This document shows, piece after piece, positions 13,160 through 43,726 of a DNA stretch of 64,000 bases. A program made the position numbers and the translations under genes. The notes below the pieces were generated by a model. The model did not search any database. It saw only the letters and a list, made by a program, of their open reading frames with translations, and was not told the DNA's origin. Within the stretch, counting starts at the first letter, position 1, and each line of letters opens with the position of its first letter. Origin of the DNA: Gracilaria domingensis (lineage: Eukaryota; Rhodophyta; Florideophyceae; Gracilariales; Gracilariaceae); the NCBI GenBank assembly GCA_022539475.1, contig VCMS01000018.1:248001-312000 (forward strand), read 5' to 3'.

Positions 13160-14328
13160 CTAACTTCTTATCACGCCTTGCAGAAGAACATCTGCATAGT
13201 TATCGTCTTGGTACCGAAACGGGTCAAGGTAGTACCTTCTAACATCCAGATCCAGAAAGCCGACTACTCTTTGAATGCAATTGACGTATTCTGTGGTGAT
13301 GTTTCCGCGACCTCTCTTCTCGAAGTAGAGCACATCAAACCCATGCTCCTCCACCATGTTCAGATCCCACTTCACATCCACAAAGACTGCGTTGACTTTC
13401 ATTCCTTCGACGTCAAGTACAACCTCTGTAATATCATTGACAATACCGTAGTACAAATGCCAATTATAAACCCGCCCCTCGCAATCTCCCGAAAAAGTGA
13501 GACATATGGATGTCTAGGGAATGAAGTGTGCGGCAACGCAATACTTCTGTCGGGCCTTGTAGGATGATCGTTTTGATCGCAGACTATGCGATTTGAGGCT
13601 TTCGATTTTGAAGTACCCTGATTCTCTGCTTATGGTTGCCGTTCTGAACTCTTTCATGGAAACGACGTCTGCTTTGTTCATCTGCGTCGGAAAATTATCT
13701 GAGAGAAACTGCCGCAGAGCCCGCTTACGCTCGTTGTTCAGATCTTGCAACGGCGTGCCAGCTCCGTAGCAATTGGCACCGGTGTACAGTGGCACGCTTC
13801 TCACGGTGAAGCTCCCATGAGTTTGACCTGAGAACGTCACAATATTTGAAAAAGACTCCTATACGACGTCAAAAAACGTCTTTACATCATTTGCCAACTT
13901 GAGAGTGAGCAATTTAAAATTCTTATGGAACAAATGGGACGAAATGTTGGATGTCTGCTGTACCCATTTTCCAATCTCTCCCAAAAGTCTTTCCACAAGG
14001 AACTGTGAGGTGACCCGGAGAGGACCACATTGCTTTAGAAGCCCCGGAAGGTGCAGTATGGTATGCGTGGTAGGTGTCAAGCAATATAGCGAGGATCGGT
14101 CTGGACAGAACAAACGAATGAACACTGTGTAACATTCTTCGACTACTCTTGTCAGAACCTTATGGCTGGCAGCGTCGCAGTTATAACTGAAGCACAAGCT
14201 CACCAGCTGACGAGTCTGGTTCCATAGGTGCATAATTTGCCCATTTACATTGAAGCGATGGAAAACGGGGAGAAGGTACAACTCGGCGTGGCGCTTCAAG
14301 TCTTCGGCTTTAAAACGGGAAAGATTCT
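13160..14328 (-). pseudogene. Tnp2/CACTA-like transposase, C-terminal half (copy B)
   Basis: This continues the gene whose N-terminal half is at 33172-34999. From 14328 it reads FKAEDLKRHAELYLLP, then a CACTA-type C-terminal region with LTPTTHTILHLPGLLKQCG, the FLVERLLGEIGKWVQ helix and HLFHKNFKLLTLKL. The end reads YYGIVNDITEVVL...RRYYLDPFRY, as in the terminal domain of copy 1 (YYGSVRKIF...RRYYVDKPQY). Two TAG codons interrupt it (13859-13861 and 13514-13516), and the frame is unchanged from 14328 to the stop at 13160. The first 4 bases (14325-14328, TTCT on plus) are the target duplication shared with the other half. Confidence 0.85.
14325..14328 (+). repeat. Left target-site duplication TTCT
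   Basis: TTCT directly precedes the left inverted terminus CCCTATAA (14329-14336). The second copy is at 33168-33171, immediately after TTATAGGG (33160-33167). Confidence 0.75.
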
Positions 14329-14551
14329 CCCTATAAGCAAATTGAAGGTACAAAAATGGTACCATATATGGCCAAGAAAATGGCCATTTTATTCTGCAAA
14401 TTAGAGTCCAGATTGAGTACGTCGAATGGCCGAAATTGTGCCTCCAATATGTGAACATGAAAAGGCCGCATAGATGATGCCAATAACAGTACCAGATATG
14501 TCCAAAACAGACACCGTAAGATTCTCCCTCTTTTTCCCGAAATATGTTCAA

Positions 14552-15257
14552 AACTCTATCTAATTATTACCGAGAAAGAGACAGAGATAGGGAACTGAAA
14601 TGGAACAAGAAATGGCCAAAATATAGACCAAAAAAAGGTACGGAATGAGATCAGGAGAAGTTCGAATTGGGGAGACTTTGGTAGGACATAAATTTATCCA
14701 AGTAAGTCCGAATGAAGAACGATTGAGTGGTAGAGAAGTGTGTCGATATATAGGCCGAGTAGCAGGCCAATCTATGTCCAGAAATGGAACGATGGAAGTC
14801 TGTTCTATATTGCCCTAAAGCGTACCAAGGGGAGATATTAATAGTTCCAAAACGTACCGTATCTAGTAAAGCACGGGCCACTATGGCGGCAATAAAGGAT
14901 CAGAACTTTAGCCTACTACAGCCCTTTAATGGTTCTAGAAAGTACCTAGATAACGCTCATTTTGTTCTACGTTTCCGTCGAAATAGGAATAGGTACAATA
15001 CAAATACGGAAACATTCCATGACTAGTTCCATGTAGGCCAATCAAATGTGACAGCAATCATAGCAAACAACAAAAGAGAGGATATGGGGGGGCAAAGGTG
15101 AGCGTTGCATTGACACTTTGGAAAGCTTTGCCCGAGAACACCGTTGAAAATTCAAGGAAGAATACGCCTAACCACTCTCCTACGCCCATGTGCACAACGC
15201 CTATGAAGTCGTAGCACTCATTGGCAGGTACCAGAATCCAAGATTCACTTCATGAAT
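14552..15257. other. Left edge of the 18.8 kb insertion, non-coding
   Basis: The sequence from 14340 to about 15060 is rich in GGCCA and TGGCC words (ATATATGGCCA, AAATGGCCATTTT) and holds no gene. Similar GGCC-studded sequence occurs at 32930-33130, 37560-37750, 41700-41820 and 58300-58500, so it is probably a dispersed repeat. Confidence 0.45.
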
Positions 15258-16722
15258 TCAATCTTGCACAGCCGGTTTAGTATCGTTCTTCGTGGGAGCA
15301 CCAGAACGCTTCGCCTTCCGAATTCTTCCTGCTCGCAGTTTCTTCAAAGGGCGAGCTACCTCATTTCGCGCTTTCGGACGGGAAGCCCCATTACCACCAT
15401 TGGCTCCCTGGCTGCACGTGGACGCTTCATTGGGACAACCTTCTGCGGCGTCGTCACCGAATCGCTTGGCCTACTGCCATTCATCTGCTCACGCCTACAA
15501 GCATCTCTGGGTTGCTTCTTCGCTAACGGCTTCTTCTTCTCTGCAGGGGCAACTGCCACCTTTTCCTGCATGACACTATGCCCATGGCCACTACGGTCTG
15601 AACCAAATCCACCATTGTTCTCACACTCTGAAGGTTGTTGTTGCACAGAACCTTCCCCGCCAGAGCCTCCATCGTAGTTGATGAAAGAGTTCAAAAACTC
15701 TTTGCTCAAACCACTGGGTACGTTATGTTTATTGTACTCATCATCGTCAACCACGTCGATGTCACCGAAACGTCCTTGATCTTCGTCGCCACTGAAGGAA
15801 TGGGACCCGCCCTTACGAAAGTCTGGTGAGGCACAAACTCATGTGAAGCAAACTGATCCGGAGTTGGAATTGTTTGAAATAATTCTTCCTCATTCTGCTG
15901 ATTCGGTGCACCGCGAGAGACATGATGACCGCCAGTTTGCTGCACGGAGTTGTTCGGCAAATCATCGCTTGAATCATGTTCATTTGTTACATACATCTCA
16001 TGTTCCGCTGTACGTGGGTGCTCCCTGGTCGCCCTCGAGTGGTTTTGTGCAGAACCTTCCTTCTGTGCGGCAGTTTTCTTCATGGTTTGCTTTGCTTCCT
16101 TAGCTTTAGCTGCCTCCGCTACAGCCTTCTTGTCTCGCTGAACGGCCTCTTTCACGAACTCTACCAGAATCCAATTGTTTTGCGCAGCACCCAGAATCGG
16201 AAAAGCTTCTAATAGCTTCTTCTGCAACTGAGAGAGCTGCGACGAAAACTGGGAACGTATGGAACAAAATGTGAGCTTACCCCTCGGCAGCTCAAGCTTG
16301 TAGTATAAGAACCTACAAGATTCGTTCTTGATAGAGTTGGAAAGAGCTGGATATATCGGATACTCATCATCGTACGGTTCACTTCTTCCTTGCTGTTGTT
16401 GATACAAGCGGTTGAAAACTACTCGCACAGAAAGAAGAGTGCCAGTTAGAAAGCCTGGACGATCAGTAGATTTCATTCTTTGCTTGCAAGATGCGGTGGG
16501 GATTCGGACTGAGTTCCGTGGCAAAAGATCACTCGACAGTCCCTTGTTGTTAGAACATGATGCAAAACGGTCAGATCCTTGGACTTCACGTGAGTTGTTG
16601 GGCATCGAGATGAGACGATGAGAGCCAATCTGGGAGAAGCTCTTGTGGGAACCAGATGGGGGATGGAATGCACTATCGGCAGTCACACGAGGCATATTAT
16701 TCTGCGTCAGTCGAGAACCCAT
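15258..16722 (-). pseudogene. Transposon accessory protein (copy 1)
   Basis: The ATG at 16722 opens a frame with the family start (PRVTADSAF). It is followed by a conserved core: DRPGFLTGTLLSVRVVFNRL, YPIYPALSNSIKNES, LPRGKLTF, LEAFPILGAAQNNW and FVKEAVQRDKKAVAEAAKAK. The same core is in copy B (DRPGVSTGTTISARALFNRR, YPIYTTMANAIKDD, DTYPVLSAAQGGW, FLKEVFQRDRKAAAEARK) and, decayed, in copy 3. A Lys/Ala-rich coiled-coil-like stretch and a disordered Ser/Lys-rich tail follow. The frame changes near 15770 and again near 15400, and the tail ends in KKLRAGRIRKAKRS...AVQD at 15258. By position it corresponds to the second (TnpA-type) protein of plant CACTA elements, but I see no sequence similarity to that family. 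Confidence 0.7.
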
Positions 16723-17318
16723 CTCTGAAAATAAGTTAGTGTCTCATGGTGGCTTCAGCGGATGGTATGAGGAACAACTTACATGTCAACCATATGATTA
16801 GGAGGCCGTCAGACGGTGGGTTCAGTAGGATAGGAGCCCGATACGTCGCGCCAACTCAACCAAGCTGGGAGACATCGATGTGGTTCTGTCCCGGTGAGAC
16901 GTTTGATTCTTGACGGAGGAGGGGGAGAAGCTGCCATTAAGAGGTAGCGTTGGGAACATTTTCCTTAAATCTGTCTCATGCTGTGCGGAAGTTGTCCGAA
17001 GCGAAAGGCCCCCCCGAACGAAGAAGGATTCCGCGACGGTTCAAGTCTTGAACCGTTGCAAAAATATGGCGATGAGCGTGAGACCTGTTCACAGATTACT
17101 TCACAATAAATCGAAATGTTTTCAGAACGAAGTTTCTACTTTCTGGACGTCGGTGGCCTTTGTAGGCCTGCTTTTGGATAAAATGAGATCAGAAAGGATC
17201 ATTCCCGTATTACGTTCCATGCATAGGAGTTCACATGAGCCACAACCCGATATCGTTGCGTACATTGCTATATCACTGAAATAGAGTAGAATCGTTTTTG
17301 TGATTGTCGTAGAGCAGA
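16723..17318. promoter_or_regulatory. Divergent intergenic region of copy 1
   Basis: This is the 596-bp spacer between the accessory gene (minus) and transposase (plus) start codons. Copy B has 604 bp in the same place (35000-35603). It must hold both promoters. I see no clear TATA box that I would mark. Confidence 0.5.
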
Positions 17319-20300
17319 ATGGAAGACCACAATAGACGAAAGCGGTACCGTTGGGAAACTGCTCCAGAACCATTAGGAGGAGAGAATGAGATTTCCGAAT
17401 CCTTCAAACCCGGAAATGAACAAGGGGCTGAAAATATATTTCCATCCACACAGCAGTACAAGAGAAGATTCCGTTGGCAAAAGTCTTGCAATGATTCTTC
17501 ACCGGAATTACGGGAAACTGAGGTTGGTGTTTCTTGTTCTCAGTATCCAATTGAGAACGAAGGCAACACTTCAGTGTCCGAGCCATCCCAGCGTTCTGAG
17601 GATGTAATTGAAATGCCTCAAGGTTCCATTGGTAATGGGTCTGATTCCAGCTCAAGTTCAGCCGCATGTGATCAAAAGGAGGGGACGGGTGGCAATAAAA
17701 ATGACAAAGATTCATTCAATGACATCCCTAGAGAGTTTGATATAAGACTTTCCTCACAGTCACTTTCAATTCTCAATTCAATGCGTCTGCGTTCACAGTA
17801 CGCTTCACCTGAACAATCGTTTGATTTCGAGAAGAGCAATATTCAGTCCGAGTTTGAGCGCCACATTGAATTCATATTCAGTGCTGAAAGGTCGAACATC
17901 TCGCAAAGGGCAACGCAACGTTTGCTGCAGGCAAGACCAATATCATCATCTTTCTCGTACAGATCCTTAATTTCGCACTCAATTAAGTGCTCTCTGTTGG
18001 AGAAGTCAAACGTTGCAATGTGTCCAAATGGGCATTTTGCAAAAGCTGGATTCCTCCGGAATGTTGATATATGCCCAACTTGCAGCCTCTCCGTAGAGAA
18101 AAAAGGGAAGAAGTTCTGGTACCTGAAAACATCTTCTGCGCTCAGAGGGCTCTGCAATTCTAGTATATCCTTCACGCACATAATGGATGGATGCCAAAAA
18201 GCGAAACAGTATCTGCTGAACGAGAGCGATGAGCTACCACCACATGACTACTACCATGGGGAGCTGTTCTTCCGACAACATGCGGATAAGTTGTTGAGTT
18301 GGAACGAACCAGAAGAGGTTCTGGTCTTTCTGTCGTTTTCGACTGACGGTTTTGATTGCGGACGAGATCGGGTTGGGAACGCAGTATCCACATGGCCGGT
18401 CGTCTCATTAGTGCTGAACTTCTCATTGTCGGTCCGAAGCAAGGCCTCAAACATGATCGTTCACGCTATCATTCCAGGTACGCACACCTCGAATCATTTC
18501 GAAACTTTCTTAGACCCACTGTTGAAAGACCTGAGAAATTTAGAGAAGGGAATTCAGTTGTCTTGCAGTGATGGGAAGGTAAGAACTTTGAGAGCGTTCA
18601 TAATGTTCTTCACAGCCGACTGGCCAGCCGCATCCAAGGTTTTGGGGTTCGCCGGGCACAATGCGGGGCGATTTTGTCGTTATTGTTGCAAGGAGAAGAC
18701 GTACTTCAAAAGTCTAAAAGCCTTTTATGCCATACCTGAATTGGCGGTCAAACGGTTCAGAGATGTCCTGCGAGAAAACGAGAAGAGCAAAATTCAAGCC
18801 GTGGTAGAATTTGAGTGTCCAAATAAGAGAACCCATCAAATGGTTCAAGCAGTATGGCAAAAGCTCAGTCAGAAGCGTTTGACACAGAATTCTAGAAAGC
18901 AGATCGTGAAGGAAACTGGAATCAAAAAGAAGCCGATTTTGGCCCAGTTAGACCTGGAATATGTATCTTCCTTTCCGTACGACGTTATTCATTTGATACT
19001 TCTGGGCTGGATTAAGCTGACTCTCAGGTTGATAATTGGATCGCATGCGAGACTCGAGAACGGAAGAAGACCTCTACCTCGTTTTTGCATACCATCTGAT
19101 ACAATGTCCAAGATTAATCGGGCTATGAACGACTCATTCAAAGGAATACCCAGTTGCTGGGGGCGACCACCGCTCTCGTTGGTCAATCTAGGGACATACA
19201 AAGCAGAGGATTTCAAACGGCATGCAGAAGTGTATCTTACTCCTTTTTTCCACTATTAAAAGGTGGATAAAAGGATCATGTGTGTCTGGATACTCCCTTC
19301 TCGACTCGTGACCCAGAGCTTCGGATACGATTGTTCACAAGAGTGAGCGTCATCGTTGCGTTCGCTAGTTTATGAGTTGTACGCAAGGTTTGTTGAACTG
19401 GTATACGACTCCGAATCGAAAGTCTTTTGTTTCACCCCGAGTACTCATGCTATTCTCCATATTCCGGAAATGCTACAGGAATGCGGGCCACTGCCATCAT
19501 GTTCACAATTCATAGTAGAACGATTGCTAGGCGAGATCGGAAACCGTGTCCAGAATAGTCTACATCTTTCCGCCCATATCTTCCATAAGAACTTCCGACT
19601 CTTTTCACTGCGTCTCTCCAACAAAGGCCGTATTCCTACAACTGTTTCCTCATATTTAAGTGCTCCAACGTCTACTTCCAGTACAAAAGCGCGACAAAGT
19701 GCACTCTCCGAAGTTGGAATTAATGTGTATTGCAATGGGCTAGGTTGCGATCCACATTCAAGCTGGCTTTCCCCTGGACGCGAAAGATGCATAGGGAAAT
19801 TTCTTAGATCGAATTTTCCGTTGCAAACAAGTTTCCATATAGAGCGTGCAAGGGAGTATGACAGAGCTATAGTCATAAACCAGAACGGAGCTGTTTCAAT
19901 CGAGACTTTTGAAGGGTATCGAAAGCGAGCTGCAAAGCAGAGAAACTGTCGTCAGAAACACTTCATTGCAGCCACTTTTGTCCGGGAAGACATTTCCATT
20001 GGTTCCATTTCTTCCGAGCTTGAGACAGTGAATAGCAAAGATCGTAGAAAACAAAGGGACTTGTACTATGGAAGCGTGAGGAAGATTTTCCAATTGGAAA
20101 TTATTGCCATAACAAATGGAGAAAGGATAAAGATAACCATCGTTATCGCGTATTTTTTTTGGCAGTATGACATAATTGAACATAGACAGTATGCTCTTCG
20201 TTACAATGAAGGCAGACAGGTCACCATCACAACCACAGAGATTGCCCAAGTTATTGACCGAAGTGTTGGGATTATTGGAATAGGTGGTCGTCGGTACTAT

Positions 20301-20384
20301 GTTGATAAACCACAGTATCCCCACTCGGAAAGATTCGATGCGTTTGTAGAAAATCTGAAAGAGCTAAGGAGCCGCCGAGAGTAG
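17319..20384 (+). pseudogene. Tnp2/CACTA-like transposase (copy 1), two stops
   Basis: The ATG at 17319 opens 1,022 codons in one frame. The start RRKRYRWE is shared with copy B (GRKRYRWE). A Ser-rich acidic region follows, then a putative zinc-binding segment CPNGHF...CPTCSL, then the Tnp2-like core: STDGFDCGRDRVG, STWPVVSLVLNFSL, MFFTADWPAASKVLGF, and a CRYCC zinc knuckle. The SFPYDVIHLILLGWIK helix is next. The C-terminal part carries FTPSTHAILHIPEMLQECG, FIVERLLGEIGNRVQ and the final YYGSVRKIF...RRYYVDKP domain. Tnp2 transposases cut and paste DNA through acidic residues; the acidic residues within STDGFD and FTADWP fit that family but are not proven catalytic. Two in-frame stops, TAA 19257 and TGA 19344, break it. 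No frameshift was found. Confidence 0.88.
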
Positions 20385-21632
20385 AATCTCATGGCAAATA
20401 CGGTCAGATGATGTTGTCGAATTTCAATTTCCAGATCACATACGAAACGATGATGGAAGAATGGAGAAAACCCGTTTGCTTGAATGTTAGAAAGTTAACG
20501 CCATAAATCGGTACTACGTTTGCCCTAAAGAACTGTATTGCAGCCGAAAGAGATCACGCATCAAGTTGCGTAGTAGAAGGATGCGATAACTTCATAGTAC
20601 GTCTTACAAACTCGAGGTCCAAGCAGAGCCATCTTTGCAACAATTACGTTGCACCATAAAAATCTCACTTTGATATGATACTACTGTGTTGAGAGGTTCC
20701 GCACTAGTTGGAAAGGAGCATCACATTCAAAGACGCAATCAGATACCGCTCCTTTCATTGTGTGTTGTACGCAGAGAAACTAGTTCAAACACCGTTGCGC
20801 CAAATGAGAGAAGAAAAAGGGCTTTGGATCTTAAGCTCGAAGCCTAGTTTCACAAAAAGTTCCCTGCGAGCAACAAACGTTCGCAGCCATCATGCCAAGA
20901 GCGGGACATTCTTGACACAGATGTGTTGCGAACATGAAAAGCGGGCGTGAACTTGTTCTTCTAATAACAAATGGTGAAATCACCTCAACGGTGCCCATGT
21001 GCGTCGCAACAGCTTAGCGGTGATGTTGAATGGTAGCGAATTAGATATGCAAAAGGCACTCGAATGCCCGACAAGCACGCGCAGATCGCCCTTTCAACAG
21101 GCGCTAGCGCCACATAGCTTCTTCTTGGGTCGCAAGCACAACGATATCACGTACTCCAAAGCGGGGTGCGTCGGGCGGCACCCTTGAGGAGCGTGCATGG
21201 CGCGTTGATGGAATCGCGCAGGTGCGCAAGGCGAAAAGCGTGAAGAAGCGAGGACGGCAGCGGCCGGCCAAACACTCGAACAAGGATAGCGGCTGGTGCT
21301 CAGACGTTGGCGAGGACAAGGCGGTGTAGCGCGAGAATCCTTAGGCTATAAGTACAGGGGCCACCGGCCATGGAAGGATCTGCCTCCCACGCATTGCCCT
21401 TCCGATTATTCTTCTTCGTACTTCGAAACTCCAGCGCTGTTCTCTTCCAAGACATATGAATGGCTATCAAGTCGGCTGGCACCGTTACGACGAAAAACGT
21501 GTACCTGAAAGTTACATGTTTGGGTCCCGTCACAAAGTTTGGGACGGGACCGAAGCCTGAATTATCCCATCCAACCTCGTTCTTCAATAGTGCGAATCTC
21601 GGGAAGTAGGCAAGCTTGTCTTCGTGTTTGAA
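20385..21632. other. Spacer between transposase and third ORF, copy 1
   Basis: No gene is recognised. A short minus-strand segment around 21470-21570 resembles one at 25370-25500 (see findings), including a GGTCCCGTC/GACGGGACC inverted repeat and a shared CGACGAAAAA word. Confidence 0.4.
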
Positions 21633-22622
21633 ATGGAGCTACCAACAGCACGTACCAACAACTACACGTCTGTGGATTTAGAAGGAGTATCTTTTCCGGT
21701 AAACTCCGTTCTGCTCCCACAATCGGCCGCAATGCTGGTACTTGAGCACACTGTATGCGAGGAAAGCAATGGGAATTGTGAAGAGGTTCATATCCTGTCT
21801 GACAGGCCTGGAAACATTTCCAAGATAAAGAATAAGACTTTGAGTGACGGGCTTTGAAAAGCTCTGTGGAGAAGTAATACAAACAACAGAGAAAGAGAAA
21901 ACCAATTGAGCCGTAAAAGGTATAAACTTTCAAGGCAGAGTGAGTGTTCTGATGACCGTAACAAACGATTGGCCAGACTTCGTGCACCTTGCGCTCGAGA
22001 AAGGGCCCTTACGAGCTTTGAAAGTGACCTTATAGAGAGCTCTAGTAGTGATTTCACCGATAGTACTTGATCTCGTGGAAAATGCAGTGATGGGACATCG
22101 TCTAGAACCCAGAGTGGTGCTGGAGTCTCAAATGTCCAACAAATTGCAGAACGTTCTGTTTCGAATTCTTCGGAACCAAACGTATTGGCGGCGTCATGTT
22201 CCCAAAGTTGCGAATCTGACTTATTCAGTGGACAGAAAAACTCACGTCTGGGTGAAAGTGACTCTAAATCTACGCAGTATCTTTATCGCATTGAGGTCGA
22301 GACGAAAGTCTTGAAAACCTGTACTCATCATATGAAGCCGATAGAGCGCGTCCCACCTGATGCTGTGGTACTGGAGATTACCCAAGAGCCGAAGACGCAA
22401 GCAAATCTAACGAAGAGGACAGCAATACGAATGGGTCCTAACCATTATGCTCATATTTCTTTGTGCAAGAGTACTCCAGTCCCGAGCTTTTGTTTTCCCA
22501 TCCTTATGAGCGCAGTTTCCAACTCATATTTGGGGTCTTTTATGTCATTTCTCAGCCCGGCGTGGGAGTTCCCGCCCTCTCTGGCTCTTGGGATATCTCT
22601 TGAAGTTGAGAATTGTTCATGA
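21633..22622 (+). pseudogene. Third ORF of CACTA-like copy 1
   Basis: Fragments in changing frames read MLVLEHTVCEES, HILSDRPGNISKIKNKT, then, after frame changes near 21855, NRERENQLSRKRYKLSRQ with a long Ser-rich tail (SDLIESSSSDFTDST, then a TGA, then more Ser/Glu). The position and composition match the ORF at 11110-12106. There is no known domain and several stops. The exact end is uncertain. Confidence 0.4.
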
Positions 22623-23139
22623 GGAGATGTCGGGATAAAAGATGGCCGTCAACAGTGATGGTCGTTATGTCATGCACATCCTCCTTCTCAATAGAACCAG
22701 GATCGACATTCACTATTTTCGAGGGTTCTTGGGATGGGCCATGGCTTTGAATTTGTTTCCGCTCATATTCAGAAAGTAAATGCCTTGCGTAAAAAAGTGC
22801 TTGCTAAGGGTTCACAACGAGTTCTGGGCAAGAAGCCCTAACCGTTGACTCTAATTGAGCTGAGCAGCCGTGTACTCGAGCGCCGAGGCCTTCCTTGCAT
22901 CCCATCTTCTTCATTACCTTCATTGCATATGGTTCCGGAGGTTGAGATCTGGTCGGGGTTTGAGTCTTGATGCGTTTACGATTGCTTTGGAGAGTACTAG
23001 CATCAAAACGTCGTGAATCTGCGGTCGTTTATTGATGGCCTGACAAAATTTCATTGCCATCTCCCTCTCTTTTTGAAAAAGACGAGATGCCTTCTCAGAT
23101 TTGGGCGCAACTTGAACGGCCTGGGTGCGATCTTCACCA
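22623..23139. other. No recognisable gene
   Basis: This lies between the third ORF of copy 1 and the SAC pseudogene. Minus frame 22920-23240 is Lys/Arg-rich and overlaps the broken C-terminal side of the SAC fragment, but it does not match the SAC catalytic region. Confidence 0.4.
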
Positions 23140-23730
23140 TCTTTTCGAATTCTCTCGTTTTGAAAGGTTACTGACGCCGTTTTCTTGTCGCCAGAACACC
23201 GGCACGCTGCCATGAATGAGAGAAAACGACGTGTATACATGACTGGTTTCTTTAGCCCAAACAGGCTGCTCTGTCTCTAGAAAGTTCGCAACGTTGCCCA
23301 AATCATCGGCACCTCCGGTAATATACCTCGTGCCCGCTCTGTGTCGTGAACGTCTCGAAATCAAAGTGGTTGTGAATTCCGCGCTGGCAGTGGCAAGAGC
23401 AGTATTGTGGAATCTCATCACACTCGTACCGACAAACCCATATATAGTGCGCACAGCCCATGACATGCAAGCATGTGGTAGTCGATCAACCATGGGAAAG
23501 TTCCACCAGAAAGTTTGTTTGCTGTGATGACGTCCGTTTCGCTGAGACCTCAGGGTAAGATTCATAGAGATCGAGTAGTACACAGAACCGCCTTCGAGGA
23601 TCTTCGTGACGGCAGACGCAACTTCTTTGTCATATTTTGGAAGGTAGTGCTTCTCCCAGTCGCATAATGGTACCGGAAGGATGGGCGGCAGCACGACGAG
23701 CCTGTATAGCAAGCACGACAAGCAATACAG
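23140..23730 (-). pseudogene. SAC-domain phosphoinositide phosphatase, fragment
   Basis: SAC-family proteins (Sac1, Fig4, synaptojanin) remove phosphates from phosphoinositides on membranes. The minus frame carries successive SAC blocks: VYYSISMNLTLRSQRN, FWWNFPMVDRL, LISRRSRHRAGTRYITGG, ADDLGNVANFLETEQ and SLIHGSVPVFWRQEN. These are the N-terminal half of the SAC domain. The C-x5-R catalytic loop expected some 150 residues further on is not present, and the frame closes near 23134. It is therefore a gene fragment inside the 18.8-kb insertion. Subfamily cannot be assigned. Confidence 0.85.
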
Positions 23731-24534
23731 AATGAAACGGAAGAATACCCAAAAACGCTGTTGCTGCATCGGCGGGCAGAGCTGAATACGTGGCGGAAGA
23801 TAGAATGCCAGCATGTTACGGAGACGCAGCCTCAAAAGGAGGTTCGGAATTTAAGGGATCTATATCAGGTACGAAGGGGAAAACAAGATAACGATGCGAA
23901 TCTTTACGGAGGTCGTTCTTCACGGCAGACATTACTGGAGGCGGAATGGAGCACGCGCAGTCCGCGCGGAGGCAGTGCTGATGACATTGCGCGGAAAGGG
24001 GGCGAAGGAAAGGAGAGTGGTGCTAAAGATACGGCCAGCGCCGACGAGGGCGCTTGCTCGCTGGTGGGGTGAGTTAGATGCGTCGCGGGCGACCAAAGTG
24101 CTCAGAAAGCCATGCTGAGCCTCACTGCTTGGGTGGAGGACTTAAGCAACAGGCATAGCGTTTTGCAAGGACGGCGTGGGTGGGGGGCAGCTGGAGGGAG
24201 AGGTACGAAAGCCGCCGCGCGCGCGTGAAGTTGACACTGCGAAGCCAACTGCCTACGCACCGCTGGCATGCGGATCGCGTCTGTCAGGCACCTGTCTGGA
24301 GCACCGCTGCACACGTCACGAGTGGGCACAAGGCGCGCGCAGGCGCGTCGACGAGCTGCACTCGGCTGCCAGGTGGTGCGCCTGCCCTCGTTGCAGCGCG
24401 TTGATTGGCCGCATCCAAACGGCGGGAGTTCTTCCATTTTGCGCCATGGTGGCGACGGTGGGTGGAAGCATTCCGTCGGCTCCACCTTTCCCTTCGAGGA
24501 TCCGTCGCCGTCGGGATTCCCTCTCTCCGCAGCG
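23731..24534. other. GC-rich stretch upstream of the HAD gene
   Basis: The stretch 24170-24530 is markedly GC-rich with many CG steps and is open on both strands, which produces long chance frames. It could be the old promoter and 5' region of the HAD gene. No gene is assigned. Confidence 0.4.
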
Positions 24535-25189
24535 ATGATAACGCCCTCGCTCACGCTTGAGCACGTCAAGCACCGCATAGACGGCGCTTCCGCGGTCATA
24601 TTCGACAACGATGGCACACTGGTCGATTCCATGCCTGTTCAAATGATTGCCTGGCAAAAGGCCCTGGCTCATCATAGGCTGTTATTCCCCGAGCACAAGT
24701 TCTACGCCATGGCAGGTATGCCTGCGTCGGGAATCATTCCGCCCCTGGCGGAGGAGCAAAATGTACCTCATGTAAGCACTGAAAGCGTTCTCAAAGGGCG
24801 CATGCAGACATTGCCATACTCTTGCAGGCAGTCAAGCCAGTTTCGATTGTGGTGGAATTACTGCATTACGCCAGACAAAAGTGTTTGCCGATTGCCGTCG
24901 CTAGCGGTGGCGAGAGGGAAGATGTTCTGACATCTTTGCGGTACTCTGATATTAATGTATCACATTTTGGTGCCGTTGTGACGGCTGAGGACGTGAGTCG
25001 AGGCAAACCACACGCAGAAACCTTTCTTACTCTGCAAAGCGGGTCAGAGTAAATCCTTCTGATTGTATTGGCTTTGAAGATGCTGATAAAGGTATGCAGG
25101 CATTGCACAATGCAGGCATGGAAGCTGTTGACGTAAGGACCATTCATGGATATCCATTACCTCAATGTCTTCGAGCCCCAGGCGAATAA
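24535..25189 (+). pseudogene. HAD-superfamily phosphatase (beta-PGM-like), two frameshifts
   Basis: Haloacid-dehalogenase hydrolases use an Asp nucleophile in DxDGT. From the ATG at 24535 the frame has motif I as FDNDGTLVDS, then the cap domain with MPVQMIAWQKAL. Motif II is IAVASGG, the motif III region is VVTAEDVSRGKPHAETF, and motif IV is CIGFEDADKGMQA. This order fits the beta-phosphoglucomutase/sugar-phosphatase branch. The first frameshift is at about 24795 in CTCAAAGGG, where loss of one A would explain it (homology resumes as RAHADIAILLQAVKPV). The second is near 25040. All catalytic motifs survive, so inactivation looks recent. A 56-bp GT-AG alternative (24773-24828) would delete homologous sequence, so I prefer the frameshift. 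Confidence 0.85.
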
Positions 25190-28000
25190 TGCCGGACTTG
25201 TTTTCTGTGTGTAACTTGATGCTTTTGCGTAATTGTGGCTCCCTCGTCTCATAAGTACAAGTACGAGTACGAGTACGATTAGAATATTAAAACTGTTTTT
25301 CGCTTTAGGGAGCACGGTCTTCGAATTTGAGCCATGAGCAACGTCGTACCATGTTGCAGTGCAGAATGAGGCCGATGGTCAGCAATACGTAGTGTCCAGG
25401 AATGACGACGAAAAATGTACATGCTCGTTTCCTCTTCGCATGCGTCACGCTGCGAATGTACAACGGGCCCAGGCCCGAAGCCTGGGCCCCATTGTAAGTT
25501 ACAGTGTACGCTTCGTACCAAGATAGATGCGGTTGCAGGTCTGCGTGGAAATTTCCGCCCAGAATCCTACTGGAATGCATCTGTGAGCTGTGTCACTAGC
25601 AACTCTGCAGAGAAATCTGTAGCCCCATAAGCAGACTCTTTTTTCTCGTACTCGAGCACCAATCAATCACCTACCTCCGTCCCCACATCCTCCAAGGCTC
25701 TTGTGATTAGTCCTGAACCCAATGGGTTGGTCTCTGAAACAGACAAGTCGCAAGATATCAACCCAAGCCTCTGCTTGTCCCCCGGCTCTCATCTCAGCTC
25801 ATTTTCTTTCTGTGGTATCAAATCACTTGACAGCGGACTCTATTTGGCTCCTGACCGCGGATCATTTTGAACGTTTGCCCATGCCAAAAGACTCCACCAC
25901 TAACAGATCCGTCAGAGTGCTAGAGAGGGATTTGCCGAATTCTGATCTCTTTGGCGGTTCGGACCTCCAGCGGATGCTCAAAGAGCAAGCCATACCAAGG
26001 GACTTTCAGCCCCGCGATCACGGAAAATAAGGCTCAACTCATTTGAGATGAAGATAGTTTGTTTTTTGTACCTACGAACCATGAGCGTGGCTTGCAGAGT
26101 GGCAAAGACCTGAAACATGAGTGAACCCATTACTACTGCGTGATACTATCGATAAAACTAGACATCGGGGGCGGATTCGAACCGGAATTAGTGTAGGTAC
26201 ATATGTGAACATGAGAGCGAAAAGAGTCAGACCCACCTCTTGTTCTGCTCGTGTAAACTTGTATTAATTCGTGACAACCTGACATGCGAAACAATGTCCA
26301 AGGGGATCTATTTGACTGCAGTCCTTGTAGGATTGCACAACAAACATGTCTCAGTTTTCTCGATACATGGTGTATAATTCCAATGCACGGGGGCATGCTC
26401 ATGATCATGAAGTGCAGTAGACACGCCCTCGCAGGATTTTTCTAGCACTAATTGACATGGCAAGTCTGCTACATGTACCATCGTTATTAGATTCTGGTAG
26501 CACCTTTCGCAGGTTGAGCGGAGTAGTTGCGCACAAGCGACAGGCAGAGCGACGTTTGTCTCTCAATTCTGAGCTGAATTACATTCCAGAATACGTACAG
26601 AGTAAGCTTCGACTATTTCAAAGAGGAAGTTATGGAATATTCATCTCTCTGATCACAACGGTATCCAATGGACCTTTGCCATCTTATCTTTAGATATGCT
26701 CGTGGGTAGCCTTTATACATACTCGAAGAAAACATTAGGGTTTGAAACGTTTCAACATGACGGCGATGTGATTTACATCAGTCGATGATAACATCATGGT
26801 AGTATGAGAACATCATGATGATGGGCCTCGTGAGGAAGAGGCGAAGCGCAGGTCTACGGAAATGTCAGTATACGTGTACCGTCGTACTTGCAGCGATTCG
26901 CCAGTGAACGTGCGGTGATCAGTAAACGGGGTGCAGGGCTGAACACCAATCAGACTGGATGCGCTGTCAAGAACTGTTTGCATATGTGGGATGGTTGTTG
27001 ACGAGATTTTAAAGCAGTTGTGGGATCAACACTGTGCAGCGTATTGAGTTACAGGAAAAAGAACAGGGAAGCTGCAATGTGATTAACATTGCTTTTATAG
27101 ATTTGACAAGGCAACTGAATACATGTTCCTTCTCACAACGCGTCCCCGCAAACTTTTTGACCATGTCTGTCCCGCATTTTCGCGCTTCAATAGAAGATTT
27201 CGCCGTTCGCCAGCGCTTAGAAGCTTCTTAGCTATGCCGACATGATGCTCATACGGAAAGGAGCAAAAGAAGTTGTATCCCTGAAGGGAAAGTCTTGGTT
27301 CGCAAAACGTCCTTTGAAATTGTGCACTGAACATGAACTTTGTGTATCTGGTATTTAAGATAACCTTAAAATCAACACCATCGGTTGCGTCGACGTTGGT
27401 GTTGGTGTTGCCCGGCCGGCATATCTGATCATACGACGTACCTGTTTTATCTTGTATCAAAATGACATACAACATCAACGTAGGGCGTCACGCAGTGTCA
27501 ATCATCTCCGATGGCACCTCAGTGCCACTCGATATCACAGCCGTGGCGGTGCATGGCACACTCTCCATCCCCATCCTTGATCCGCCGCCATGCCCCATCT
27601 TGATCACCTGTCGATCACAATGTGATAATCACCGTCCGTGCGCCGCTCTGGAATTGCGCTCATCTCACCCGCCTCTCTTCCCAACGCGCCTTTCGCGTCC
27701 GGCGTCGCGAATATCACGCGCCTCGCCGTCAAGCGTCAGTAAGCTGCAAACACATGTCACCCCCCACCACGCGCCAACTAGGCATTGCACGACAATCAAC
27801 TCCGACTTTCCCAAGGCAACATGGCTGCGGTCTGCGTGTTCGAGCGCGCGTTTGAACGCCCCACAAAACGCGCCAGTGACGACACGCGGCCTGATCGACC
27901 ATTGTCTTGCTCCATCTCGCTCGACTTTATTTCTGCCAATCAATCTCTGTCAAAATGCCGACCAGGGGAAAGAGCTCCAAACTTTTAGCGCTAGGCATCA
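25190..28000. other. Long stretch with no clear gene
   Basis: Candidate frames at plus 25722-26030 (Ser-rich) and plus 26457-26693 have no recognisable motif. The stretch includes a strong hairpin at 25465-25489, a short GTACGA microsatellite near 25258-25280, and a segment similar to 21.5 kb. Confidence 0.4.
25465..25489. repeat. 10-bp GC hairpin, 5-nt loop
   Basis: GGGCCCAGGC and its reverse complement GCCTGGGCCC flank CCGAA. Outer bases TACAA (25459-25463) and TTGTA (25492-25496) can extend the stem past a small mismatch. It lies inside the segment that resembles 21.5 kb, where a weaker GGTCCCGTC inverted repeat occupies the matching position. Confidence 0.7.
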
Positions 28001-30260
28001 ATGTCGCACAGCAAGCCGTTCACAAAACGGGCCAACTTGCTAGACAAGCTCAACATTGATCCCTAGGCCTCGTCGAGTGCGCCTCCGAATCACTCCTGCC
28101 CAGGTCATCCTGCGCCGTTTTCCTACCCGCAGGGTGCGCCGCCGCCTCCGCCTTTCTATCCGTCTCACGCAGCTCCTCCTTCCCCTCCCCCGCCTCCATA
28201 CCCGTCTGGTGCTCCACCTCCCCCGCCTCCTCCTCCGCCGGAACATCAGTTCACTCCTCAACTAAACTACTCATACTCTACCCCTCGCCCTTCAAATGCG
28301 CTACATTTGTCTGACCAAACCCCGCTCCCAACTCCCCCGAGGCCACCTTCCATTCCACCTACCGCCACATCAGCTCACTATGAGCCCCATCCTCACTATA
28401 CTTCGCCGGCGTCAGATTTTTTGTCTTCCCCAAACCCGCCACACTATCCGCTGCCAGTAGTTCCATATCCCTTGCCACCATACCCTGGTCAGGCACCCAA
28501 TTACACTCATGAGACGAGCCCTTAAGCAACATCTCCACATCCAATGGCAACCAATCCGCGTCCCACGTCGTCACACCCGTCTTCACACACTCACGGCGCC
28601 AAAAATTCAGCACCGAACTTGTACGAGCCTCCGACCACTCCTCCCTCTATGTCGAACACGAACCAAACCTTCGTTTTCGCCATCTGCGCCACCACAAACA
28701 CCTCCACCAGGCTATCCGGAAGTGCCTCAACCGTCGCATCAGCAGCCGCTCAATTATTACACCCAACCTGCTCACAATTCTTCGTCGGCCACCTGTTCAG
28801 AGCGACCAAACTATCCTCAGGCCGCATCATATACGCAACGTCCGTATGAGTCCGCCCCAGATTTGCCGTGTCCTGAGTATGATACATATCCACCCGCGAG
28901 TCACATTCCTCATTCTCAGAGTTCGCCAGCTGTATCTACTCACTATCGACCTCCTCCTCATCACGCTTTTTTCGGTCCTATGCCAGGGCATGATCCAGCG
29001 GAAGGCAGGCCAAACCACTCATCTTCCTCCTTTCAAGCTGCACATGATGGGTATCCCCATCCTCCCGTGGAAAGTGATATTGAATCATATCATATTGCAC
29101 CCGTATCGCCGCAAACTCCCTTTGTTCTACCATCTGCTATGGCATATACTCCAGACTGTTGATCTCTGCCTGGACCGTGTCCAGCGACAGCTTTTGCGTC
29201 AGAGGAAACTGCCTCACAGCCGTCTTCAATCGCTTCTACTCAAATGTCCTGTGCCGCCTTTAATATCGTTCCGGTGCGGATTGAACGCCCGTCTGAGACA
29301 TCTGAATTGATTATGGACTAATTGCTAGAAGAGGTTCACAAAAGTTAGGCAAAAGTTGCGAGTAGCCTAGGAAAGATTGTGCTTGATCAGGCTTGCAAAG
29401 GGCTTTCTCGCATTTTGCATCCGGCAGATGACACCGACATACAATTGTTTGGAATTCTATTACGACGCCCGGATTATGAAACATGGCAACAGGATTATCA
29501 TCGCTGTGGTCGGGACAACATTCCCATTTTTGCTATCTCGTACACTCATCGCAATCGAAGCGTTGGTAGCTATACGTTCTCCGATGATAGTTGGGATAGT
29601 TTTCAGGTAGCGATGCATATGGTCGTGAAGTCCAATGCACAGAAGGTTCGGGTATGGCTGGATCAATATCTTTGGCTGCGTGATACTAATTTGGGTTGTT
29701 GGGCACACACAGGTTTAGTACCTTACATTACCTGTCCCTTTTTTGGTCTTGGTGTGAACGCACCAGAAAGAGATAGGACTTTTGAGTCCCTTTATCGCGT
29801 CTGGCCATATCTGGACGAGATTGCTGGACTCTGGTCGATGGGAATGATAACCACCTGTGCGCTGCATCAGGGCGATGAACAAGATTATCCATCTACTGTA
29901 ACGCATGTTCGTTATAACCAGCGAGTTTGTCTTGAGCCCCAAGCAAGTCTCTACTTGCTGCTTCATGCTATCTGTGATGGAAAGATCACAGACCTTGATT
30001 GCGCATGTAACGACGATGTTCACGAGCTCATCGACATGGAGAAGTTTAACATGGGATATGAGTTAGACCGCGTAGTTGCTGGAAGCAACTGGAGAGCGCG
30101 TATTTCACCTGTGGAGAAACAGAACCGAGTTCAGCGGTTTTCAAATGTAAGATCTGCCAATGGGGAGTCTATCACAGCGTTTTCATCTGGGACAGTGTAC
30201 TTGGATGTATGTCGCCGCCAGAATATCATTCGAAATCGAGCTATGATTGTCTTACCCTGA
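28001..30260 (+). pseudogene. Pro/Tyr-rich protein with unidentified C-terminal domain, decayed
   Basis: The ATG at 28001 (MSHSKPFTKRANLLDKLNID) leads into a long low-complexity region rich in PPPPP, YPS and SHAAPP units (28090-29150). From about 29350 the same gene becomes globular: CKGLSRILHPADDTDIQLFG, IPIFAISYTHRNRSVGSYTF, KVRVWLDQYLWLRD and FESLYRVWPYLDEIAG. Stops at TAG 28064, TAA 28523, TGA 29160, TAA about 29318 and TAG about 29346, plus one frameshift near 28670, break it. The last 290 codons are open. I do not recognise the C-terminal domain. The XYPPX-like N-terminus suggests a disordered, possibly condensate-forming or surface-binding tail. Confidence 0.65.
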
Positions 30261-30785
30261 CGTGTTTCTCAGACAGACCGCAAAGCCTCGATCTTCTATG
30301 GATGTAAACTATTGGCAAACCTGATTAGTATCATGCTGGTGAACTGCAGATTCGATGTGTGCATCTTGATGCGATCTTTTCGCTGCACCGGCAAATGCGC
30401 CGAACGATCTGGGGCTTCCTTGTTCCAGGCCTTCTAAGCCTTCTAATCAATGTAGCTCACTATCTCGAGACTAGAGGGTTAGCCTTTCTTCAGAGAGAGG
30501 GCCATCCAGCGTCACACTTCTAACTCTTGGGCATCCCTTTCTGCTGAGTACTGTACTTCGCGAATTAGCGATATCCATGGCGAAGGATAATACTTTTCGT
30601 CCTCTTCTTTTGCGTCAAGTGTTCGCACTCTTTCCTCTGTGCAATGCACGTGTTTACGGGTGACGTTGCAGAGTTTTCGACAATTAACATCTTAGTGACT
30701 GCTGATTCATCATCAATGGCCATGACCTGTACGGCGCCTCTACGCATACGGGCAGTGGACAGGCTATGACAGTGATTTGTCGTCC
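30261..30785. other. No recognisable gene
   Basis: This is a convergent spacer between the Pro-rich pseudogene and the 3' end of the strictosidine-synthase-like pseudogene. Nothing else is seen. Confidence 0.4.
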
Positions 30786-31895
30786 CTACGCAGTGTCCGG
30801 TAGTCGAAAGCGATAAATTGTGCTCCCGTGAAGGATGCTTAACCATAGGTCGTCTACACATCGATGAGCTGCTGCAACCAATACATGAGTCGTAGATGGG
30901 TCACCATACTATACGCTCACTTTTCCCGTTTCTTCATCAATATCTGCCACCATGATGGCAGGCTTGATAGGAACCAGAGGCTTCGGAGGAAGATTTGCAG
31001 CAAATCGGCGGATGAAAGCCGGCATTCCCTGGAACAGTCGTAATGTGAACACTGCCGGGCCGTAGAGGGTAACCCAAAACTGCATTCCAACACAGTCATA
31101 TGAGATTCCATCAGAAAAACCCGGCAGTTCTACCAGCAATTGTCTCTCGCCACACTTGTCACCTCGAAGCCATTGCTTCTAAATTTTCAGAGTGGTGGTT
31201 TCTGCGAAGAGGGCGTAGTCGCCGCTAGGATGTAGCGCAATTCCGTTGGCAAAGGCTATACAGTCTGCAAGCTGTGTGGTTTCCATTGTTTCTGGATCAT
31301 ACATAGATAAGCGCCCAGATGGAGACCCGTACAAGACGTCTGTGACAAATGTTCTGAACGTATTAGAATGACGGCTATGCATGTCGCGTTGTAGGAACAG
31401 CTTGGTGGCAGATGTGAAGAACACTTTCCCATCAGAAGTTCCATGTACGTCATCGCAGTAGGTGATTTCATCTGATGGATCGGACGACAATGCAGGAGAA
31501 ACAATATCCGTATGAGTTTTGCTCGGATCGGGCGGCACCCAAAGAAGGCCGTGTGTAGAGTCGCATACATAGAGGGCCCCGGTTGAGGGATCAAAAGCAC
31601 CGCCTAGCAATGCACCCCCAGTAACTGCGTAAGTTTTATACGTTGACCTGTTTTGAGCTACGGTCCAGACGATGCCACGCGCGTCAGTAAGGAATATCTT
31701 GCAGTCAGATTGGCGAAAAAATGCAGTTTCTGGTGACACAAGCTTTGGGGTTTGTGGTAGCTTGATTGCAGATGCTAGTAGATTGTTCTGAGTCCAGATT
31801 TCTTTGTTGTATTCGACTTGAGGCAAGGAGGAAGGCTGTTCGCCGAAAAGATAGAGCGGATGCAGAGGCTTTCTATCAAGCCAAAGCGCAGTCAC
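30786..31895 (-). pseudogene. Strictosidine-synthase-like / APMAP beta-propeller, two TAG stops
   Basis: This six-bladed propeller family includes plant strictosidine synthase-like proteins and animal APMAP, membrane-anchored hydrolase-like proteins of the ER or surface. One frame of 370 codons shows GALLGGAFDPSTGALYVCD, ITYCDDVHGTSDGKVFF, GRLSMYDPETMETTQLAD, FANGIALHPSGDYALFAET and LVELPGFSDGI. Two in-frame TAGs (31179-31181 and 30909-30911) break it, and homology continues through both to the end at 30786. At the 5' side a TAG sits just above a GTG at 31895, where the hydrophobic anchor would lie, so the real start is lost. Confidence 0.87.
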
Positions 31896-33159
31896 CAGCA
31901 GCTAATGCGTGAAAACGAGGATCATCATGCTGGTAGAGGGCTCTTGTGGGCGAGGGAAGGTTAGCGCGAACAGACGAAATACTGCCAATATGGAATAAGA
32001 TGGGCCTGTGTCTGGGTCGCCGAAGGTGAACTAGCTTTCCCTCGTTATGAGCTCGTATACCCGTATCGGCTAGCCCCCGTAGCTGGTTAATCTGGTCAGT
32101 CTGGCCCGCGCAGAGCGCAAATTCGATGAATTACGTCATGTCCAGTTCACAATGTGAACGAATTGCCCTCGGAGAATCTCATCTAGGCATAGAACGAACA
32201 CTGTGAATCAAGCGTTGACACTTTGGTGCTAGATCTAGTGATCAGCTGGAACACTAGTCGCTTTGAGCTCGGTCCTCCCATCTCTTCACTTCACCTTCTC
32301 CAACGTGTGCTAGGTTTTGATCAAGAGACAACTCGCCAATCCTAACGAATTGAAGCTCAGATCCTTAAAAGATTCCTTCCGTCTCGGTACCATCATCATT
32401 CAGTGGTTTCTGCTGAGGAGAGTGCACGGAAAGGGTCGGCACTCTTGTGCTGAATTATTTTCTGCATGGTCAGAGAGAGCGTGCTTGGGCTGAGCGATCT
32501 GCGGTGCTTTCATATCAAGAAGATGTACATGTCGGGATGTGGTACCAGACGTGGCATGGCGATAGCCGCCCTCTTTCGCTGCTGACGCACTCTCCTCCAT
32601 TCTTGTTAACATGTGTGTGTAAGGACAGTGAGGGGACTGGTATGGCTTCACGCAAGGGATGTCCAACAACACAACCTTTTCAAACGGGTGTCTTCTGCCG
32701 AGAAAGGCATGAGGGGCGTTGGTACAAGCTGAAAATGCTTGTGTTGTTGTGATGCGTCTACAATAATGCCAGCCTTGTAGAGAGCTAAATCGTCGAGACA
32801 TGGCAGACTGCTCCACACACGGGAACCGTGCCGGCTCCCGGAGCCAGTCTATGGGCCTAACACTGACCATGCAAACACAGCATTACTGGCAGAGGTATTC
32901 ATATATCACCGCGGCTGTAGAGCGTCCGAATTGTGGGCCATTCTCAATGATGTCGAACATACCAAATATGGGCCAGAAACGGCTTCAGTAGTCGCCCTGC
33001 CGTTGCGGTGTAAATTCGACCATTAACCGTACCCTGAATTGTTTTTTCGAGAATTGGTTCGAGACATGAGACAACCTTGTGCCTACATCGTGGCCACATA
33101 TTTAAGTTTTTGAACATTTTTCGGACTTCACTCGCTGCAAAATGGGTCACAACCAAGGT
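31896..33159. other. Right part of the 18.8 kb insertion, no gene
   Basis: Frames at 32400-32870 (minus) and 32447-32752 (plus) overlap on opposite strands and match nothing I know. The last 230 bp share the GGCC-rich style of the left edge. Confidence 0.4.
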
Positions 33160-33167
33160 TTATAGGG

Positions 33168-33171
33168 TTCT
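33168..33171 (+). repeat. Right target-site duplication TTCT
   Basis: TTCT follows the terminus TTATAGGG. It duplicates 14325-14328. Confidence 0.75.
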
Positions 33172-42099: not shown

Positions 42100-42340
42100 G
42101 GGCCCGCGAAAATTCGTCCAATCAAATTTAATTCGAATCTCCAAGAATTTTCAATTCTTGTTCGGTCTATTTTCATTAAAACAAGTCTCGCGTCGTTTGG
42201 TTTTCATTGCATCGAAATCTAATGAATTTCTAATGATAGCTAGGTTTCCAAAAAAATTGTTCCATTGAAAATGCCTTGAGCATGCGAGGAAAAGTGCTTA
42301 GATACAGATAAGTCAATGAATATTGAAGGAAGGAAAATGG
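42100..42340 (+). repeat. MITE copy M1 (~240 bp)
   Basis: CGCGAAAATTC near 42104 opens the copy. The shared body has CAATCAAATTTAATTCGAAT and TCCATTGAAAATGCCTTGAG. The right end is worn and is followed by TGGTACC. It lies just 3' of the accessory gene of copy 3. Confidence 0.75.
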
Positions 42341-43274: not shown

Positions 43275-43482
43275 AGTTCAGGACCCCATACTGGGCTACA
43301 GCCGTACGCGGCTCGCAAAGGGGAAAAAGGAAAGTTAGAATCTGGTATTAGTCTGACTTTGACTTGGACTGTGCGTGATAAGAGACGCGCTGCATTCTGA
43401 AACGAACCTGACGGGTATGAATTCTCACTGGCTCCGTAGTCCCTCGTATTCCTCTACTTACAGGAGGGAGAAGGTGGGTACC

Positions 43483-43726
43483 CAGCGAAAACTCCTGCCC
43501 TCAAGTTTAATTCGAATATCATACGATTTTCGATTCTTGCTCTTTCAATTTCCATTTGACCAAATCATGAGTCATTATATCTGTATCCCTTCGAAATCCA
43601 ACTAAATTCTGTCGAAAGCAATTTTTGTAAAAACTTTAATCCATTGAAAATGCCTTGGGCATCTAATAAAAAGTGCCTACGTACGGCGAAGTAAATGAAT
43701 ATTCAATGGCGGAGAGTTTTGCCTGG
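43483..43726 (+). repeat. MITE copy M2 (244 bp) with GGTACC flanks
   Basis: The ends are CAGCGAAAACTC and GAGTTTTGCCTG, an imperfect 12-bp terminal inverted repeat (10 of 12 match). GGTACC occurs directly on both sides (43477-43482 and 43727-43732), which fits a 6-bp target duplication. The copy lies in the divergent spacer of CACTA-like copy 3. Confidence 0.85.

What the first reader, a model, noticed from the sequence alone, without database searches (positions are those of the whole stretch)
14325..33171. 18.8-kb insertion that splits a transposase seamlessly
The copy-B transposase halves end at 33172 and resume at 14328, 18.8 kb apart. The intervening block starts CCCTATAA and ends TTATAGGG, and TTCT lies on both sides. 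Keeping one TTCT gives 1,828 + 1,169 = 2,997 bp, exactly 999 codons, and the joint reads PLSLQN-LSRFKAED where intact copy 1 reads PLSLVNLGTYKAED. Frame, terminal repeat and target duplication all agree. The block carries a whole CACTA-like element plus four decayed host-type genes, so it is either a giant cargo-bearing transposon with no obvious transposase of its own or a nest of later insertions in a smaller one.
Basis: seen in the sequence. Interest (0 to 1): 0.85.

Follow-up and report, generated by a model that had tools for sequence, protein, structure and literature searches.

The report
Gene-hauling giant transposon in red alga
A red seaweed's 18.8-kb jumping gene, which carries a gene for its own jumping enzyme, has picked up a 10-kb stretch of ordinary chromosome with four genes, carried it around the genome as decaying copies, and landed cleanly inside another jumping gene.

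Summary
The 18,839-bp block (14329-33167) is one DNA transposon. The uninterrupted target lies on the same contig, joined exactly at one TTCT. Two further family members have other 4-bp duplications (GAAT, GTAA); a third, C75, has none. The termini alone would prove nothing: such pairs arise about 120 times per 64 kb by chance.

The "whole CACTA-like element" inside is no second element. It is the block's own tnp2-type (Transposase_21) gene. Relatives with 46-53% identical transposases have matching right ends downstream on the same strand.

The "four decayed host genes" are one contiguous segment (23177-32817) captured from an intact host locus (C95:115920-126138). Four more elements carry parts of it, and three of these also carry sequence matching other loci.

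Cargo and backbone have different histories (private changes, p = 3e-14), which suggests that cargo was later overwritten by host or other-element sequence. The host is taken to be Gracilaria domingensis. Enlarged En/Spm elements are reported from a red alga, so this is a new variant of a known kind.

The parts
14325..14328 (.). left target-site duplication TTCT
   Evidence: single TTCT at the empty site on C18
14329..14336 (+). left terminus CCCTATAA
   Evidence: homology of copies C75 and C342 starts exactly here
14329..23176 (+). element's own left backbone, about 8.85 kb
   Evidence: colinear in C75 (93.1%) and C63 (92.6%), divergent in C342; 22483-22666 is absent from C75 and C63
15709..16743 (-). 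second element gene, 345-codon frame, no Pfam family
   Evidence: 51% aa identity to C342 over codons 2-242; about 42% over up to codons 74-204 in ten further loci L005-L014; Pfam none
17313..20381 (+). element's own tnp2-type transposase, 1,023 codons including in-frame stops at 19257 and 19344
   Evidence: Pfam PF02992 E=7.7e-15; eight relatives have open frames of 1022-1032 codons without stops
21459..22517 (+). further patches conserved with C342 (69-71% DNA), possibly a third element gene
   Evidence: no Pfam family for the two frames tried
23177..32817 (+). captured host segment, colinear with C95:115920-126138 (about 90%)
23177..23944 (-). cargo: SAC1-like phosphoinositide phosphatase piece (about codons 67-335 of 1406), broken
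   Evidence: Pfam Syja_N 5.3e-39
24535..25186 (+). cargo: HAD hydrolase, in three frame pieces; a public gene model of Gracilaria domingensis (272 aa) maps onto it
27955..30209 (+). cargo: proline-rich protein, several stops
30789..31928 (-). cargo: strictosidine-synthase-like / SGL protein, full length with 3 stops
   Evidence: Pfam Str_synth 2.5e-12
32818..33167 (+). element's own right end, ending TTATAGGG
   Evidence: shared with C75, C63 and C359, parts of it with C342 and C407; not in host C95
33160..33167 (-). right terminus, inverse of CCCTATAA
33168..33171 (.). right target-site duplication TTCT
33172..34999 (-). target: 5' part of the split transposase gene of another tnp2-type element (3 in-frame stops)
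13160..14328 (-). target: 3' part of the split transposase gene

Best explanation
The block is one large EnSpm/CACTA-like (tnp2) DNA transposon of a red-algal lineage with CCCTATAA termini and 4-bp target duplications. It carries its own transposase gene, now broken, a second conserved gene, and a captured 9.6-kb piece of host chromosome bearing four genes or gene parts. It jumped by cut-and-paste into the transposase gene of a related element. The cargo is passenger DNA and is decaying. Shown: boundaries, empty site, other copies, host source locus, decay. Inferred: that an enzyme of this transposase family moved it; that the capture arose by DNA repair at or near the host locus (4-base TCTT match at the left junction); and that cargo in C75, C63 and part of C407 was later overwritten by host-like sequence through gene conversion, re-copying, or exchange with other elements.
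For: Exact empty site. Four members with both ends located (window, C63, C75, C342): 3 of 4 have a 4-bp duplication, TTCT, GAAT, GTAA. Transposase inside by Pfam. A right-end pattern (37 matches, 0 for the reversed control) finds ends 11.4-20.6 kb downstream of the start, and on the strand, of five further family transposases (C15, C85, C18:73623, C136, C137; 46-50% identity). Cargo is colinear with an intact host locus whose SAC1-like frame (1,452 codons) runs on past the captured edge; the HAD gene there is 75-78% identical to genes of Gracilariopsis chorda and Agarophyton chilense. In five cargo-bearing elements (window, C75, C63, C407, C342) the cargo has the same orientation and order, and window, C75 and C63 share the right junction. 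C342 also holds a Vma12-like frame whose only other match in the genome is on C98. Private changes window:C75:C63 are 278:190:247 in the backbone and 234:40:67 in the cargo (p = 3.4e-14 and 9.9e-13), while the last 283 compared cargo sites look like backbone (17:7:9) and hold 22 of the 30 changes shared by all three.
Against: C75 has intact termini but flanks GAAG/AGGC, no 4-bp duplication. The left end of C407 was not found. The window's transposase is broken, so current mobility is not shown. The uneven divergence could in part be local rate differences, host constraint on coding sequence, or alignment error in the proline-rich part.
Confidence: 0.88

Rival explanations
1. A smaller CCCTATAA transposon into which a separate CACTA-like element and other pieces inserted later.
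For: The backbone is 46% G+C and the cargo 50%, and the block holds a transposase plus host genes; the C63 copy really does carry later insertions.
Against: C75 and C63 share the left terminus and transposase region colinearly; C342 has the same layout with a 53% identical transposase and its own GTAA duplication; five further family transposases have a like right end downstream; no inner terminal pair among the 25 listed of 46.
Confidence: 0.04
2. One capture, then only point decay: no overwriting of the cargo; the uneven divergence is rate variation.
For: Same order, orientation and right junction in window, C75 and C63; host coding sequence is expected to evolve slowly, and CpG sites change faster.
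Against: Private changes in cargo versus backbone differ at p = 3.4e-14 and 9.9e-13; within one host gene C75 shows 44/485 then 31/1680 differences, although the alignment of that proline-rich part is less sure.
Confidence: 0.3
3. Several independent captures of the same locus by different elements.
For: Left limits differ (C95 115920, 121324, 123543, and inside SAC1 for C407); C152/C57 hold yet another SAC1 piece; divergence from the host differs between copies.
Against: Window, C75 and C63 share the right junction to within 2 bases and 22 changes in the last 283 compared cargo sites; with C169 as outgroup 13 of the 22 are changes on the element side, 6 on the host side and 3 unresolved.
Confidence: 0.25
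4. Segmental duplication or assembly artefact rather than transposition.
For: Draft assembly of 680 contigs; the right end of C63 recurs on C359 at 99.8% over 3.7 kb.
Against: Exact target duplication with an empty site, and termini shared by copies on several contigs in different flanks.
Confidence: 0.02

Closest known systems
Enlarged En/Spm (CACTA) elements of the red alga Chondrus crispus, 16-20 kb with 4-5 ORFs (Kojima et al. 2013, not seen; as cited in PMC6431247, passages read)
   Same: Red alga, same transposase superfamily by name, same size class, more ORFs than usual
   Different: Their sequences and termini were not available here; host-derived multi-gene cargo is not mentioned in the passages read
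Pack-CACTA / Pack-TYPE elements of plants (PMC8903248, PMC13317346; passages read)
   Same: CACTA-like element carrying copies of host genes between its termini
   Different: Those are described as non-autonomous; this one carries its own (broken) transposase gene and a 9.6-kb contiguous four-gene segment
Tgmt*, 20.5-kb CACTA transposon of soybean (PMC2613891, passages read)
   Same: Very large CACTA element inserted in a gene
   Different: CACTA termini with a 3-bp (ATA) duplication; my search terms 'captured' and 'host gene' do not occur in its text
Animal CACTA relatives with a CCC core, e.g. the one read here as Tribolium's, CCCTAGTAGCACC (PMC1636069, passages read)
   Same: CCCTA-type terminus with a CACTA-superfamily transposase
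   Different: 2-bp target duplication, animal hosts
Gene-carrying Helitrons (PMC6431247, passages read)
   Same: Carry several host gene fragments; in maize up to 39 kb with up to nine
   Different: Rolling-circle elements; here there are inverted termini, a target duplication and a tnp2 transposase

Membership tests
EnSpm/CACTA (tnp2) superfamily, broad sense | Transposase_21 (tnp2) transposase | tested here: met
   PF02992 55.1 bits, cut-off 28.6
EnSpm/CACTA (tnp2) superfamily, broad sense | 2-5 bp target duplication (CMCT clade, PMC12730594, passages read) with short inverted termini | tested here: met
   8-bp CCCTATAA ends; TTCT, GAAT, GTAA in 3 of 4 members with both ends. That paper gives CA..TG termini 'in most cases'; here CC..GG
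EnSpm/CACTA (tnp2) superfamily, broad sense | C(2)C and H(3-4)H motifs between second D and last E | tested here: inconclusive
   A CxxC follows the ADWPA motif in three of four proteins compared, the C342 one reading SRYC; the H pair and catalytic E could not be assigned; the structure model failed, mean pLDDT 34
plant-type CACTA, narrow sense | termini reading CACTA with a 3-bp duplication | tested here: not met
   CCCTATAA and 4 bp
Pack-CACTA / Pack-TYPE | captured coding DNA between the termini | tested here: met
Pack-CACTA / Pack-TYPE | non-autonomous, no transposase gene | tested here: not met
   own transposase gene present, though interrupted
Starship (fungal giant transposons; features recalled) | tyrosine-recombinase captain gene (DUF3435) | tested here: not met
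   Pfam on ten window frames, nine of them inside the block, found none
Helitron (features recalled) | no terminal inverted repeats, no target duplication | tested here: not met
   both present

The most novel reading that the evidence does not exclude
A transposon family that keeps an old piece of one host locus beside its right end as a homology anchor and repeatedly re-copies adjoining host genes into itself, so its cargo is renewed from the living genes rather than inherited only from element to element.
Probability: 0.35. Interest if true: 0.7.

Novelty: new variant of a known kind. Interest (0 to 1): 0.5.

Why it matters
It shows that a CACTA-like element with its own transposase gene, in a red alga, can carry a contiguous 9.6-kb, four-gene block of chromosome, well above the sizes that PMC6431247 (passages read) cites for rice Pack-MULEs (most 1-2 kb, none above 7 kb), though maize Helitrons reach larger totals. 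Public gene models of Gracilaria domingensis map onto at least two of the decaying cargo copies, so gene counts in such genomes may be inflated. Because source locus, several carriers and an empty site sit in one assembly, how cut-and-paste elements acquire and refresh host DNA becomes directly testable.

Tried and rejected
Searched for an inner element with its own termini: 46 inverted pairs in 14329-23200, of which the 25 longest were listed; the longest is a 22-nt hairpin, none a convincing pair of ends. Looked for a functional role of the cargo: stops or frame breaks in the SAC1, HAD, proline-rich and SGL copies, and dN/dS against the host of 0.32-0.78 in 11 comparisons, fit decay on one side and constraint on the host side. 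One cargo frame is open: the Vma12-like frame in C342, 97% DNA but 94% protein identity to C98, which fits a recent copy without selection. Considered methylation- or RIP-like mutation as the cause of the faster cargo change: CpG sites do change more often in most comparisons, but only about half of the changes are transitions and T>C is common too. A first genome pattern that I made up found nothing. A structure model of the C18 relative was useless, mean pLDDT 34, so no fold search was made. No match to phage records. Paper searches on red-algal DNA transposons and gene capture (listings seen) showed no report of this; the library is open-access only.
Full report
What was checked. The window is C18:248001-312000 of a 77.9-Mb assembly of 680 contigs. 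Contig lengths of 540,755 (C18), 198,231 (C95) and 93,611 (C407) equal those of contigs behind Gracilaria domingensis protein records, so the host is taken to be that red alga (taxonomy). The best outside relative of the block's transposase is from Gracilariopsis chorda (34% identity over 72%; 2 hits in all); a search with the C18 relative also gave 2 hits.

Boundaries. TTCT-CCCTATAA and TTATAGGG-TTCT stand at the stated places, each 8-mer once in the window. Such a pair is not rare: 148 in this window, mean 119.8 in 20 surrogates. The proof is the empty site: C18:16546-20712 carries the target gene uninterrupted, and the two window flanks meet there sharing only TTCT, at 92.3% and 95.8% identity. 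The target is itself a decayed tnp2-type transposase gene: 3 stops in the right half, 3 in the left half including the last codon.

Other copies. DNA searches with the two ends (14 and 13 matches) give C75:81886-98455 (16.6 kb) and C63:145439-191242 (45.8 kb, enlarged by later insertions). C342:9785-25211 (15.4 kb) is a more distant member. With the window that makes four with both ends seen; three have 4-bp duplications (TTCT, GAAT, GTAA), and C75 has none (GAAG/AGGC). The right terminus of C63 is altered (TTACAGCG). C359 repeats the right end of C63 (99.8% over 3.7 kb). C407 has a right end, cargo pieces and a transposase remnant, but its left end was not found.

The transposase belongs to the block. 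Frame 17313-19256 matches Transposase_21 (7.7e-15) and continues in the same frame at 19347-20381 after stops at 19257 and 19344. 68 family matches were scored in the genome out of 315 candidates; eight of them have open frames of 1022-1032 codons without stops. A right-end pattern with up to 3 mismatches gives 37 matches and none for the reversed control. Five of them lie 11.4-20.6 kb downstream of the start, and on the strand, of the transposases on C15, C85, C18:73623, C136 and C137 (46-50% identity); one on C139 may be a sixth. Most of the 68 have no such match. A left-end pattern finds the four known members plus one weak match on C3 with 3 mismatches. A second gene at 15709-16743 (minus) is kept in C342 and, in part, in ten further loci.

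The cargo. Window 23177-32817 is colinear with C95:115920-126138 (about 90%, three pieces). C95 is an ordinary host locus: a 1,452-codon SAC1-like frame, a HAD hydrolase, a 787-codon proline-rich frame and a 391-codon SGL/strictosidine-synthase-like frame, with a rhomboid/UBA and a C2-domain gene on either side. The HAD gene is 75-78% identical in G. chorda and Agarophyton chilense. The captured segment cuts SAC1 in the middle. The left junction shares TCTT between element and host. The cargo copies of these four genes have stops or frame breaks. In one search two of 11 comparisons, window HAD and C342 proline-rich, count no stop, but the window HAD is split over three frames and the C342 piece shows one stop. 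Pieces of the same segment lie in C75, C63, C407 and C342. C75 holds 2.7 kb of other sequence that matches C347 (88%) and C127 (89%), parts of which are also in C63. C342 holds 4.8 kb matching C98 (92%) with a Vma12-like frame that has no third match. Whether C98, C347 and C127 are host loci was not read.

Two histories. Along the segment, divergence from C95 is patchy. Window: 5-10%, mostly 6-7%, from 115920 to 123530, then 10.2%, 8.7%, 14.4% and 17.1% at the right edge. C75: 9.1% in its first 485 sites, 1.7-1.9% over most of its part, then 4.7% and 13.1%. C63: 3.4% and 2.3%, then 6.9% and 13.0%. C407: 5-7% in the middle, 10-26% elsewhere. In the backbone, private changes of window, C75 and C63 are 278, 190 and 247. 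In the 2,585 cargo sites they share they are 234, 40 and 67 (Fisher p = 3.4e-14 and 9.9e-13). The last 283 compared sites behave like backbone (17, 7, 9) and hold 22 of the 30 changes shared by all three. With C169 as outgroup 13 of these 22 are on the element side, 6 on the host side, 3 unresolved. The simplest reading is one old capture, kept in the window copy, with the interior of C75, C63 and part of C407 overwritten later by host-like sequence. Exchange with unsampled elements would look the same, and rate variation is not fully excluded.

How it works, most likely. A tnp2 transposase binds the CCCTATAA ends, cuts the element out and inserts it with a 4-bp stagger (inferred from termini and duplications). 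Host DNA entered during repair at or near the C95 locus; plant work proposes tandem insertion followed by aberrant excision (PMC13317346, PMC8903248, passages read), while gap repair with template switching is my alternative. C95 shows no leftover element at 115920, where the SAC1 frame is intact.

Comparison with the known. PMC6431247 (passages read) cites 16-20 kb En/Spm families with 4-5 ORFs from the red alga Chondrus crispus, states that no Pack-MULE in the survey it cites exceeded 7 kb, and gives maize Helitrons of up to 39 kb with up to nine gene fragments. PMC1636069 (passages read) gives CCC-type termini with 2-bp duplications for animal CACTA relatives. PMC12730594 (passages read) gives 2-5 bp duplications for the wider clade. 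The element fits the broad superfamily, fails the narrow plant CACTA definition (termini, 3 bp) and fails the Pack-TYPE definition because it carries a transposase gene. Red-algal gene capture of this kind did not appear in the listings.

Limits. No movement was observed directly. The structure prediction failed.

Noticed in passing
C40:305886-306166, C42:3672-3952, C121:143455-143735, C155:13574-13854 and 29071-29351, C181:87732-88012, C247:39038-39318, C421:25969-26249: Eight 281-bp pairs of inverted ends of the type CCCTATAAACCCCGGTTATGGC, which look like miniature elements of the same terminus type; target duplications not read.
   Followed up: partly
window 24268-25186; C407:55711-56187: Public Gracilaria domingensis gene models (P0006, 272 aa; P0034, 159 aa) map onto decayed transposon cargo, so annotation appears to count pseudogenes as HAD hydrolase genes.
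   Followed up: yes
C342:22327-23040: An open Vma12-like frame (V-ATPase assembly factor) inside a transposon, 97% DNA and 94% protein identical to its only other match, on C98.
   Followed up: partly
C152:118523-120771 and C57:190439-192687: Two loci hold two SAC1 matches about 1 kb apart (together spanning C95 114008-116232, 84-87%), perhaps a further capture of the same gene or a paralogue.
   Followed up: no
window 37834-38716, half copies at 2280-2634: A roughly 900-bp imperfect palindrome, 74% self-complementary, with a half copy elsewhere in the window.
   Followed up: no
window 42103-46905 and 44855-47470: Several repeats of about 240 bp in both orientations, mixed with decayed pieces of tnp2-type transposase.
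   Followed up: no
window 54493-55892; C63:155065-156461; C407:45186-46601 and 65920-67305: A 1.4-kb repeat that forms the end of a later insertion interrupting the SGL cargo of the C63 copy.
   Followed up: no
C342:9785-25211: Chimera: its transposase region is only 67% identical in DNA to the window element, while its right end and cargo piece are 86-90% identical, suggesting exchange of halves between element lineages.
   Followed up: partly
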